Source of the DNA: Christensenellaceae bacterium
Lineage (GTDB): Bacteria; Bacillota; Clostridia; Christensenellales; Aristaeellaceae
Direction of reading: 5' to 3'
Length of the DNA stretch: 33,816 nucleotides
NCBI GenBank assembly: GCA_012797085.1
Contig: JAAZPT010000162.1
Location: 1 to 33,816, forward strand
A program made the translations under genes and the position numbers. The notes beneath the pieces are model-generated. The model made no database searches. It was given only the letters and a program-made list of their open reading frames with translations, and was not told where the DNA came from. Each line of letters opens with the position of its first letter. The stretch's first letter is position 1. Positions 26,588 to 33,816 of this stretch are shown here, one piece after another.

Positions 26588-26649
26588 TCACTATCACCTC
26601 ACGGGGTCTTTGTATTTCTTTCGCTAATTATAACAAGCTCGTAAACAAA

Positions 26650-27825: not shown

Positions 27826-28038
27826 ATGGCTATATCTATCAGATTAAGTGAACAGGAGACACAGCTAATAAAAGATTATGCAGATTTAAAAGGCTATAGT
27901 GTATCGGAATTGGTACGTCGCAGTGTTATAGAACGCATTGAAGACGAGATTGACCTCGAGATGTATTATAAAGCAAAAGAGCAAGATGACGGCACACGCT
28001 ATACACATGAAGAAGTAAAGGAAATGCTGAATTTATGA
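27826..28038 (+). CDS. RelB/RHH-type antitoxin
   Basis: MAISIRLSEQETQLIKDYADLKGYSVSELVRRSVIERIEDE; RBS AGGAGG before ATG 27826. Confidence 0.85.
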   Translation: MAISIRLSEQETQLIKDYADLKGYSVSELVRRSVIERIEDEIDLEMYYKAKEQDDGTRYTHEEVKEMLNL

Positions 28039-28307
28039 TGTATAAGGTGGAATACACAAAACAAGCCTTAAAAGATTTAAAAAAGTTGGACAGGACAACG
28101 GCCGCATTGCTAATTGGGTGGATAGAAAAAAACCTGGTTAATTGTGAAAACCCCAGGCAACACGGCAAGGGGCTAAGTGCTAATTTAAGCGGACTATGGC
28201 GTTACCGTGTAAACGATTACAGGCTGGTTGCCGAAATATCCGACGAGCGAATATGTATTACAATGATTAACATAGGACATAGAAAAGAAATTTATAAAAG
28301 CCTTTAG
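28035..28307 (+). CDS. RelE/ParE-family toxin
   Basis: MYKVEYTKQALKDLKKLDRTTAALL...GLSANLSGLWRYRVNDYRLVAEISDERICITMINIGHRKEIY; overlaps the antitoxin. Confidence 0.92.
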   Translation: MMYKVEYTKQALKDLKKLDRTTAALLIGWIEKNLVNCENPRQHGKGLSANLSGLWRYRVNDYRLVAEISDERICITMINIGHRKEIYKSL

Positions 28308-29253: not shown

Positions 29254-29649
29254 ATGGGCGGTAGAGGATCAAGTTCCGGAGTAAGTGTTAAGGGAATACC
29301 TTATGGTTCTGAGTATACATCTGTATTAAACATCATTAATATAAAATTTCTTAAAAAAAATGACGGCAGTTCAACGGCACCATTGGAAACTATGACAAAA
29401 GGGCGTGTTTATGTGACTATAAATGATGAAAACAGGTTAAAATCAATATCATACTATGACAATAACAATAAAAGAATGAAACAAATAGATTTAGACCATT
29501 ATCATAAAGTTAAAGATAAAAACGAAAAACCACATAAACATTTAGGTTATTATCATAACGAAAAAGGTGATAGTACATTATCTTATAAAGAAAGTAAAAT
29601 GGTTGACTTTGTTAATAGAGTATGGAATAATAGAACTAATAAGAAGTAG
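29254..29649 (+). CDS. MGGRGSSSG-headed phage-associated toxin-like protein 3
   Basis: 131 aa; MGGRGSSSGVSVKGIPYGSEYTSVL; conserved His-rich tail QIDLDHYHKVKDKNEKPHKHLGYYHNEKG; RBS AGAAAGGAAATAATAAC-ATG. Confidence 0.65.
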   Translation: MGGRGSSSGVSVKGIPYGSEYTSVLNIINIKFLKKNDGSSTAPLETMTKGRVYVTINDENRLKSISYYDNNNKRMKQIDLDHYHKVKDKNEKPHKHLGYYHNEKGDSTLSYKESKMVDFVNRVWNNRTNKK

Positions 29650-29690
29650 TTTAGGAGGAAAACAAAAGATTTTGTAATCTTTAAACTCCG

Positions 29691-29714
29691 GTGCGACTCC
29701 GGACTTTTTATTAA
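29691..29714 (+). terminator. Short hairpin + T-run (TCCGG-tgcgact-CCGGA-cTTTTTA)
   Basis: 5-bp stem followed by T5. Confidence 0.5.
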
Positions 29715-29779: not shown

Positions 29780-30090
29780 TTGAGTGATAATTTAGTGCCT
29801 ATGTCGGAGCGAAGCAAGGACGAAGTTAGAAAGCTTGCAAGAACAGGCGGTATTAATTCAGGTAAAACACGCAGAAAGCAAAAAGCACTAAAAGAAATAT
29901 TTAAAACCTTGCTTGATGAAGAAGTTACCGACAACAAAGGCAACAAAAAAACGGTTAAAGAAGTCGGAGCAATCAAGATTGTACAGGAATATTTAAAAGG
30001 CGATTTTAAAGCCTTTGAACTTGTACGAGATATGATTGGTGAAAAGCCGGCAGATAAGGTTATCGTTGCCGAAGTTGCAAAAGCGCTAGC
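29780..30090 (+). pseudogene. Phage small-terminase / KGG-motif-like protein, 3'-truncated
   Basis: MSDNLVPMSERSKDEVRKLARTGGINSGKTRRKQKALKEIFKTLLDEEV...EYLKGDFKAFELVRDMIGEKPADKVIVAEV, then an unrelated tail AKALALVLLMSCLVLVP up to the stop at 30130. Confidence 0.6.
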
Positions 30091-30115: not shown

Positions 30116-30151
30116 GTTTTAGTCCCATAACGGGGCTTTTCTATTTATAGT
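30116..30151 (-). repeat. Solitary degenerate copy of the right-edge CRISPR-like repeat
   Basis: GTTTTAGTCCCATAACGGGGCTTTTCTATTTATAGT against consensus GTTTTCGTCCCCTAACGGGGCTTTTGTATTTAGAAC, about 29/36 matches. Confidence 0.6.
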
Positions 30152-31330: not shown

Positions 31331-32080
31331 CTAAAAATTCTTGAATAAATATTGGCCATAGACCTTTTCCCCCAATACGGTTAAGGCTTTTTCGGGGCAA
31401 TTGTTTACGCAACGATAGCATAATGTACATCTATCATGGGAAATTGCTTTTTCTTCCACAAATATATTTTTTGTGGGGCAAAGTTTACTACAGAGGCCGC
31501 AGCCTGTACATTTATTTGTATTAATTACAGGCTTTTTCTTATAAGAGGATACTGCATTTCGGAACCATAGCCGCTGTAAAAGCAAGCCCGATACACGATT
31601 AAAAATGCTCAGCCCGTCCTTATGAGGATTGTTTTCTTTAAGCCTTGATACTGCAATACCAATTTTTTCCTTTGCCCTATTTATCATTTTTTTATTTGCT
31701 TTATAAGAAGTTTTCAATATTGGCGAATCCGAAATGGAATCCGGCATACGCAAATGTAAGCCTCCTAATATATGGGCAGAGTCAAATAAACGAGCGGCGC
31801 ACCCTGTACCGTCACCGCTAAAAAAAGCCATTGTAGCTATAATATATATCTTTTTTCCGTAAAAGCATTTTTGGTTATTCACTATAAAATCATGGACTAT
31901 TTTTGGTAAATTACTAAAATAAACAGGGTATCCGAAAACTATAATATCTTGACTTTTAATTTTATCAACTACAGAAGGATCCTCTATAGAAACAATATAC
32001 GCTGAAGGATCAAATTGCCTTACAAAAGTCTCAACACAATATTTAGTGTTCCCTGTTCCGCTGAAGTACACGCCTAACAC
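31331..32080 (-). CDS. EFR1-type flavodoxin-ferredoxin fusion
   Basis: 249 aa; MLGVYFSGTGNTKYCVETF flavodoxin start; two 4Fe-4S motifs CTGCGLCSKLCPTK and CTLCYRCVNNCPEKA. Confidence 0.92.
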   Translation of the reverse strand: MLGVYFSGTGNTKYCVETFVRQFDPSAYIVSIEDPSVVDKIKSQDIIVFGYPVYFSNLPKIVHDFIVNNQKCFYGKKIYIIATMAFFSGDGTGCAARLFDSAHILGGLHLRMPDSISDSPILKTSYKANKKMINRAKEKIGIAVSRLKENNPHKDGLSIFNRVSGLLLQRLWFRNAVSSYKKKPVINTNKCTGCGLCSKLCPTKNIFVEEKAISHDRCTLCYRCVNNCPEKALTVLGEKVYGQYLFKNF

Positions 32081-32191
32081 GATATTCTACCCACCTGTAA
32101 ATTAATACATTAACAATTTTATTTAGCATTATCCTCTAAGAAAAGATCGGGAATAAATTCCGTTTATTGTATAGAATAGTTTTTCTTAAAT

Positions 32192-32923
32192 TTATTTTTT
32201 AGCAAGCCAACCCCTAAAAAGGCCGCCTTGAAAGAAGGAAATAACGAAAAAGAACACACTTGCCATAGGTACAAAAATAAAGGAAGGAATCATAATACGG
32301 GTATATTGTTTGCCGAAAAAGGAGCCATTATTTATCGCAATACCCATACGAATTAGAAAGAACAAAACCCCCGCATTAAAAAACAAAAGAACACCCACAT
32401 TTTGCAAAATAGGCGAAAGATAACCGGTACCCCAAAAAACTCCGGTTTGTATTCCATTTATGATATACCGTGTTAAATACATTACTATTTGTATAGCAAA
32501 GACGATGCGGGTAACATTCAGCATTACACCGCCTCCTATTCCTACGCCGCCGCACCAATTAATTCCGGCTCTAAGGCAAAAGTTTTCAAGCACCTGCATA
32601 AGGGGTTCATTCTGCCGCCCTTCTATGAAACCGTTATTGGCAATACAATAAAGATTTGTGTGCAGATTATTCTCCAAAAAGAACTTTTCCGCCTCCTCTA
32701 AAAAAGCCAACACATGGGAGGGGACGCCATCTACATATAAAGGTAGGCAAAGCACTACGGAGTCCGCATCTTTAAGCTCTTCAAAAATAGGTGCATAATC
32801 GTTTTTGAGCCTCAGTTTTTTTATAACTTTATCACCCTTTAAAAACAGACTTTGCAGTGCAGCAAGGTATGATGAAGCACTCAGGCTTTTTTTAGGGCTG
32901 CAATTAATCAATAATGTTTTCAT
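32192..32923 (-). CDS. Flavodoxin-like NAD(P)H-dependent oxidoreductase with C-terminal TM segments
   Basis: 243 aa; MKTLLINCSPKKSLSASSYLAAL; SVVLCLPLYVDGVPSHVLAFLEE. Confidence 0.8.
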   Translation of the reverse strand: MKTLLINCSPKKSLSASSYLAALQSLFLKGDKVIKKLRLKNDYAPIFEELKDADSVVLCLPLYVDGVPSHVLAFLEEAEKFFLENNLHTNLYCIANNGFIEGRQNEPLMQVLENFCLRAGINWCGGVGIGGGVMLNVTRIVFAIQIVMYLTRYIINGIQTGVFWGTGYLSPILQNVGVLLFFNAGVLFFLIRMGIAINNGSFFGKQYTRIMIPSFIFVPMASVFFFVISFFQGGLFRGWLAKK

Positions 32924-33408
32924 AAAGCTGCCTCCGCTTCTGAAGCCGATTCGAAAAAAAGCACCTCGGTTTCCCTGTATCCATCGTTAATGGCATTCCT
33001 TTTTGCCATATAAGTGAAGGTGGCTTTTTCCTGCTCCGTAATATCGCCATATACAAGCACTTTCATAATATTATGCTTTCCATAGCGCAGTGTATGGTGC
33101 ATCTCCCCTTTTCGATATGTGCAAAGGGGTGTAGAAGAACCTATTGTTCTATCCATAACGTTTTTAATTTGCGTACTGTAAGCGCCGTAAAGATTTTTTG
33201 TGATAATAATCAGCTCATCCGCACGCCCCAAAATACGGCATGCCGTATGGAGTTTGTCTTTAATAAAACATTCCGCCGGATGCTTTGTCCAGCAGCCGAA
33301 ACAGCCTTTACAAGGGGCATATTTACCGTCCGCTTCAATAATAGCATCGCACTTTGTTAAAAGCCGTTCGCTATGGATTGTATCTAAATCGTGTAGTATA
33401 ACTTTCAT
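32920..33408 (-). CDS. Flavodoxin-family protein with CxxCxxCW motif
   Basis: 162 aa; YAPCKGCFGCWTKHPAECFIKD; LIIITKNLYGAYSTQIKNVMDR; overlaps next gene. Confidence 0.82.
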   Translation of the reverse strand: MKVILHDLDTIHSERLLTKCDAIIEADGKYAPCKGCFGCWTKHPAECFIKDKLHTACRILGRADELIIITKNLYGAYSTQIKNVMDRTIGSSTPLCTYRKGEMHHTLRYGKHNIMKVLVYGDITEQEKATFTYMAKRNAINDGYRETEVLFFESASEAEAAL

Positions 33409-33712: not shown

Positions 33713-33816
33713 TTTTTAGTCCCCTAGCGGGGCTTTTGTATTTAGAACATAGAAGCTTGTGCCAAGTTGGCGGATGCTGTAGTTTTCGTCCCCTAACGGG
33801 GCTTTTGTATTTAGAA
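33713..33816 (-). CRISPR. Candidate terminal end of a CRISPR array: two 36-bp repeats and one 33-nt spacer; array would continue past the right edge
   Basis: R1 33713-33748 TTTTTAGTCCCCTAGCGGGGCTTTTGTATTTAGAAC; R2 33782-33816 GTTTTCGTCCCCTAACGGGGCTTTTGTATTTAGAA (last base beyond window); spacer atagaagcttgtgccaagttggcggatgctgta. No cas gene in the window. Confidence 0.6.

What the first reader, a model, noticed from the sequence alone, without database searches (positions are those of the whole stretch)
33713..33816. CRISPR-like repeats begin at the right edge of the window
Two copies of a 36-bp unit (29 3'-most visible bases differ at one position) are separated by 33 unrelated nt. On the minus strand the consensus is GTTCTAAATACAAAAGCCCCGTTAGGGGACGAAAAC, with a CCCC/GGGG stem and an AAAAC end. 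R1 is degenerate at the end expected for a leader-distal terminal repeat, which puts the leader and any cas genes beyond the window. The GGGGAC(T)AAAAC end resembles type VI-A repeats (Cas13a), but CCC..AGGG stems also occur in type I/III repeats, so the type is not assignable here.
Basis: partly seen in the sequence, partly recalled or inferred. Interest (0 to 1): 0.68.

Follow-up and report, generated by a model that had tools for sequence, protein, structure and literature searches.

The report
Tail of a type III-A CRISPR array
The right edge of this contig holds the oldest end of an ordinary bacterial CRISPR memory array, very likely served by the type III-A (Csm) immune machinery found on another contig of the same genome bin, plus one worn stray repeat 3.6 kb away.

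Summary
Two 36-nt repeats (33713-33748; 33782-33816, cut by the contig end) flank one 33-nt spacer. The window is a whole contig (C435) of a fragmented genome bin (2.06 Mb, 441 contigs, about 80% complete), so the array cannot be extended.

The type can be assigned. The repeat core CCCCGNTAGGGGACNAAAAC occurs in 11 places in GTDB species genomes, mostly Clostridia. Eight of the ten genomes carry csm3 on the same contig within a few kb of the repeat, in cas6-cas10-csm2-5-cas1-cas2-csm6 loci. The window's own bin holds csm2-csm3-csm4-csm5-cas6-csm6 on a small contig (C200) cut inside csm6. No Cas13a, Cas1, Cas2 or Cas10 was found in the bin. The array is therefore most likely the leader-distal tail of a type III-A array, not type VI-A.

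The single spacer has no match in the collections searched.

A third, solitary repeat (30116-30151, 30/36 identical) lies just past a truncated prophage gene. It is most likely an array relic; an RNA anti-CRISPR is possible but unsupported. Overall ordinary.

The parts
33713..33748 (-). R1, leader-distal terminal CRISPR repeat GTTCTAAATACAAAAGCCCCGCTAGGGGACTAAAAA, degenerate at its 3' end (ACTAAAAA against ACGAAAAC)
   Evidence: terminal repeats of related arrays decay in a similar way
33749..33781 (-). Spacer, 33 nt (crRNA sense TACAGCATCCGCCAACTTGGCACAAGCTTCTAT); no protospacer found
33782..33816 (-). R2, CRISPR repeat (N)TTCTAAATACAAAAGCCCCGTTAGGGGACGAAAAC; its outermost base lies beyond the contig end; 8-nt handle ACGAAAAC; CCCC/GGGG hairpin
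30116..30151 (-). Solitary degenerate repeat ACTATAAATAGAAAAGCCCCGTTATGGGACTAAAAC, 30/36 identical to the repeat, innermost stem pair broken; likely array relic
29780..30079 (+). Truncated phage gene (phrog_2412; its relative in Streptococcus phage Javan254 sits directly upstream of the terminase large subunit); about 47 C-terminal residues missing; context of the solitary repeat. The end coordinate is estimated from where the phage similarity stops

Best explanation
The feature is the leader-distal tail (two repeats, one spacer) of a type III-A CRISPR array of a probable Clostridia species. The array would be transcribed leftwards on the minus strand from a leader beyond the right contig edge. 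Cas6 (encoded on contig C200 of the same bin) would cut each repeat near the base of the CCCC/GGGG hairpin, leaving the 8-nt 5' handle ACGAAAAC. The crRNA would then load into the Csm complex (Csm2-Csm5 on C200, Cas10 not recovered). Target RNA binding would trigger Cas10 and, through cyclic oligoadenylate, Csm6. Shown: the repeats, the shared repeat core with csm loci elsewhere, and the csm-cas6-csm6 genes in the bin. Inferred: that C200 and this array are one locus, the cut position, and all activity. The stray repeat at 30116-30151 is best read as a decayed relic of the same array family.
For: Repeat, spacer and chance level. Eleven stretches in GTDB species genomes share the core, mostly Clostridia arrays of 36-nt repeats with spacers of about 33-38 nt. 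csm3 is over the cut-off in 9 of 10 of these genomes, in 8 of them on the same contig within a few kb of the repeats. Cas6, Cas10/Csm1, Csm2-5, Cas1, Cas2 and Csm6 identified around the relatives' arrays. Own bin contig C200: Csm2, Csm3, Csm4, Csm5 over curated cut-offs, Cas6 (PADLOC Cas6_IIIa 3e-34) and the first 102 aa of Csm6, homologous and largely colinear with those loci. The handle ACGAAAAC differs by one base from the staphylococcal type III-A crRNA tag ACGAGAAC (PMC5687920). In Clostridium sp. MD294 the order csm6, then array, then unrelated genes matches the geometry expected here.
Against: C200 is not physically linked to the window, and its GC is 33% against 39.5% for the window (though the phage-like stretch of the window is also 33%). 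No cas10, cas1 or cas2 was found in the bin, which at 80% completeness and 441 contigs is weak. Cas6 is below the NCBIfam cut-off (48.6 against 58.65 bits). No protospacer was found.
Confidence: 0.88

Rival explanations
1. The array belongs to a type VI-A (Cas13a) system, as the GGGGACTAAAAC-like end suggested to the first reader.
For: R1 and the solitary copy end in GGGACTAAAA; from my own knowledge, many VI-A repeats end in GGGGACTAAAAC.
Against: No Cas13a in the bin. The same repeat core is beside csm genes in 8 of 10 genomes. The hairpin loop is 4 nt, and the less decayed R2 ends in GGGGACGAAAAC.
Confidence: 0.02
2. The array is a stand-alone or orphan array (or uses another Class 1 effector), and the Csm contig is unrelated or contamination.
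For: No physical link between C200 and C435; C200 has a lower GC; bin contamination 2.46%; cas1, cas2 and cas10 not found.
Against: Repeat core and Csm genes co-occur on one contig in eight other genomes; the tetranucleotide correlation of C200 with the window (0.94) is in the range of pieces of the window itself.
Confidence: 0.08
3. The units are a dispersed intergenic or terminator repeat and not a CRISPR array.
For: On the + strand the unit looks like an intrinsic terminator (stem plus T-rich tail, for the solitary copy), and a solitary copy lies between convergent genes.
Against: Only three copies in the bin above chance, all in this window. Conservation extends over all 36 nt with 33-nt spacing, and near relatives are long arrays next to cas genes.
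Confidence: 0.01
4. For the solitary copy only: it is a prophage-borne solitary repeat unit acting as an RNA anti-CRISPR (Racr) against the host's type III-A system, by mimicking the repeat and occupying Cas6 or Csm proteins.
For: Solitary, essentially full length (36 nt, 49 bits over 34 nt), next to phage genes, in a host bin with a matching III-A module. Solitary repeat units of all CRISPR types except VI are reported in phages and plasmids, and 83% match the host subtype (PMC10651486).
Against: The phage gene beside it is truncated and the neighbouring terminase large subunit is missing, so the copy lies at or past the breakpoint rather than in an intact phage intergenic region. No promoter-like site around it. 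Its stem has lost a pair. No copy in IMG/VR viral contigs.
Confidence: 0.1

Closest known systems
Type III-A (Csm) CRISPR-Cas loci of Clostridia, e.g. Clostridium sp. MD294 (ASF356), Catonella morbi, Mogibacterium pumilum, Lachnospira sp. MAG
   Same: 36-nt repeat with a conserved CCCCGNTAGGGGAC core and an AAAC end, spacers of about 33-38 nt, csm2-3-4-5 order, cas6 and csm6; decayed terminal repeat in some
   Different: The 5' half of the repeat differs between species; in the bin cas6 sits between csm5 and csm6, whereas in MD294, Catonella and Lachnospira it is upstream of cas10; cas10, cas1, cas2 and the rest of the array were not recovered
Staphylococcal type III-A crRNA tag (ACGAGAAC, PMC5687920)
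   Same: 8-nt 3' end of the repeat, ACGAAAAC, differs at one base
   Different: different host and a different repeat body
Solitary repeat units / RNA anti-CRISPRs in prophages (PMC10651486)
   Same: the copy at 30116-30151 is solitary, essentially full length, near phage genes, in a host bin with the matching system
   Different: next to a truncated phage gene, no promoter-like site, decayed hairpin, no viral relative found; more easily read as an array relic

Membership tests
CRISPR array | Direct repeats of 23-47 nt with regular spacing and unique spacers | tested here: met
   2 repeats, 33-nt spacer; only 2 in register because the contig ends
CRISPR array | Three or more regularly spaced repeats and a leader | not testable with these tools
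   contig ends in R2; no other contig of the bin carries the repeat
Type III-A CRISPR-Cas | Repeat family shared with csm loci | tested here: met
Type III-A CRISPR-Cas | Csm2-Csm5 effector genes in the genome | tested here: met
   C200, (same bin, not same contig)
Type III-A CRISPR-Cas | Cas10/Csm1 | tested here: inconclusive
   not found in the 80% complete bin; C200 ends in csm2, where cas10 lies next in relatives
Type III-A CRISPR-Cas | Csm6 CARF-HEPN accessory ribonuclease | tested here: met
   first 102 aa of Csm6 at the end of C200, 109 bits, E 2.2e-31; below the full-length cut-off because it is cut
Type III-A CRISPR-Cas | Adaptation genes cas1 and cas2 | tested here: inconclusive
   not found in the incomplete bin
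Type VI-A CRISPR-Cas | Cas13a effector | tested here: not met
   no match in the bin; bin incomplete
RNA anti-CRISPR (Racr), solitary copy only | Solitary full-length repeat in an intergenic region of a phage or plasmid | tested here: inconclusive
   solitary and full length, but at the broken end of a prophage remnant
RNA anti-CRISPR (Racr), solitary copy only | Expression from its own promoter and inhibition of the host system | not testable with these tools
   no promoter-like site; needs RNA-seq and an interference assay

The most novel reading that the evidence does not exclude
The solitary repeat at 30116-30151, at the broken end of a prophage remnant, is (or was) a phage-borne repeat mimic that interferes with the host's type III-A system, an RNA anti-CRISPR aimed at Cas6 or Csm.
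Probability: 0.08. Interest if true: 0.45.

Novelty: new member of a known kind. Interest (0 to 1): 0.15.

Why it matters
It adds one more probable type III-A locus in a Clostridia-like genome and shows that a repeat core (CCCCGNTAGGGGACNAAAAC) that resembles a type VI-A end goes with Csm loci in Clostridia. That is useful for typing arrays stranded at contig edges. The spacer and the stray repeat are of local interest only.

Tried and rejected
Type VI-A: Cas13a search of the bin negative. Dispersed repeat: only three copies in the bin above chance. Full-length repeat with up to 3 mismatches in 200 family genomes: no other carrier; exact longer patterns in GTDB and IMG/VR contigs: none. Spacer against phages and plasmids (best phage match E = 1), viral contigs by exact 19-mer and by degenerate codons, and 308 family genomes with 3 mismatches: nothing but itself. 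Phage relatives of the gene beside the solitary copy in IMG/VR: none confirmed. A possible fourth repeat-like stretch near 26593-26617 at the other edge of the phage-like region matches 20 of 24 core positions (simulated P about 0.02) but overlaps the ribosome-binding region of the rseC-like gene and is not found by the covariance model, so it is treated as probable chance.

Full report
The window is the whole of contig C435 of a fragmented genome bin with 2,058,368 bases in 441 contigs, about 80% complete. The right edge of the window is therefore the end of the contig.

Observation. R2 lacks only its outermost base. A 27-nt core with up to three mismatches occurs only there and in none of 100 shuffles. 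A third copy in the same orientation at 30116-30151 matches 30 of 36 positions, where shuffled windows reach at most 23. A profile of the repeat finds these three copies in the whole bin and nothing else above chance, although the three copies also helped to build it. The unit is therefore not a dispersed genomic repeat.

Type. An exact scan of one genome per species in GTDB with the core CCCCGNTAGGGGACNAAAAC gave 11 stretches, most of them clear arrays in Clostridia: Catonella morbi, Mogibacterium pumilum, Lachnospira, Brotaphodocola, Clostridium sp. MD294 and several MAGs. Around them lie Cas6, Cas10/Csm1, Csm2-Csm5, Cas1, Cas2 and Csm6. Csm3 is over the curated cut-off in 9 of the 10 genomes, and in 8 it is on the same contig within a few kb of the repeats. 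The two exceptions are a single-copy match in a cyanobacterial MAG, whose csm3 is on another contig, and one MAG with a short array but no csm3.

The bin itself carries a matching module. Contig C200 (3,791 bases) encodes Csm2, Csm3, Csm4, Csm5, Cas6 and the first 102 residues of Csm6 before it ends. These proteins are homologous to those beside the related arrays, for example Csm3 at 45-53% identity. Cas10, Cas1 and Cas2 were not found. That is uninformative for an 80% complete bin, because C200 ends where cas10 would come next. Cas13a was not found either. The last eight bases of R2, ACGAAAAC, differ by one base from the published staphylococcal type III-A crRNA tag ACGAGAAC (PMC5687920).

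Orientation. The hairpin and the handle put crRNA sense on the minus strand, so the leader lies to the right, beyond the contig. R1 is decayed at its 3' end (ACTAAAAA), as is the last repeat of the related array in Brotaphodocola, which ends ACTATAAT. In Clostridium sp. MD294, whose repeat is similar to the window's in part of its 5' half, the order is csm genes, csm6, about 220 bp, array, unrelated genes. Reading C200 and then C435 on their minus strands would give the same order. That join is inferred, not shown.

Spacer. The one spacer has no convincing match among phages, plasmids, IMG/VR viral contigs or 308 genomes of the family. Read on the strand opposite to the crRNA it is an open frame (IEACAKLADAV), which would suit an RNA-targeting guide, but 11 open codons are unremarkable.

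The solitary repeat. It lies about 35 nt past the point where similarity of a phage gene ends. That gene (29780 onwards, phrog_2412) has a relative directly upstream of the terminase large subunit in Streptococcus phage Javan254, and the window copy lacks roughly its last 47 residues and the terminase. The solitary repeat is thus at the broken end of a prophage remnant. It shares the ACTAAAA end with R1, the oldest repeat. The simplest reading is a relic of the same array family left by rearrangement. A phage-borne RNA anti-CRISPR (solitary repeat unit, PMC10651486) is possible, but no promoter-like site is nearby, one stem pair is lost, and no viral relative was found.

Verdict. Interest is low.

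Noticed in passing
window 30116-30151: Solitary degenerate copy of the CRISPR repeat, 3.6 kb from the array, just past a truncated phage gene; it also looks like an intrinsic terminator on the + strand.
   Followed up: yes
window 26593-26617: Weak repeat-like stretch (20 of 24 core positions) upstream of an rseC-like gene at the other edge of the phage-like region; simulated P about 0.02, probably chance.
   Followed up: partly
window 29640-29711: tRNA-like gene (Rfam tRNA 48.9 bits) that ARAGORN reads with a four-base anticodon TTGT, i.e. an 8-nt anticodon loop, inside the prophage remnant.
   Followed up: no
window 27826-28307: Toxin-antitoxin pair of the RelBE/ParDE kind (toxin 28035-28307, PF05016) in the prophage remnant.
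   Followed up: no
window 31331-33408: Cluster of flavodoxin/ferredoxin and FMN-reductase-like genes between the array and the solitary repeat, next to a PadR regulator and a DUF2812 gene.
   Followed up: no
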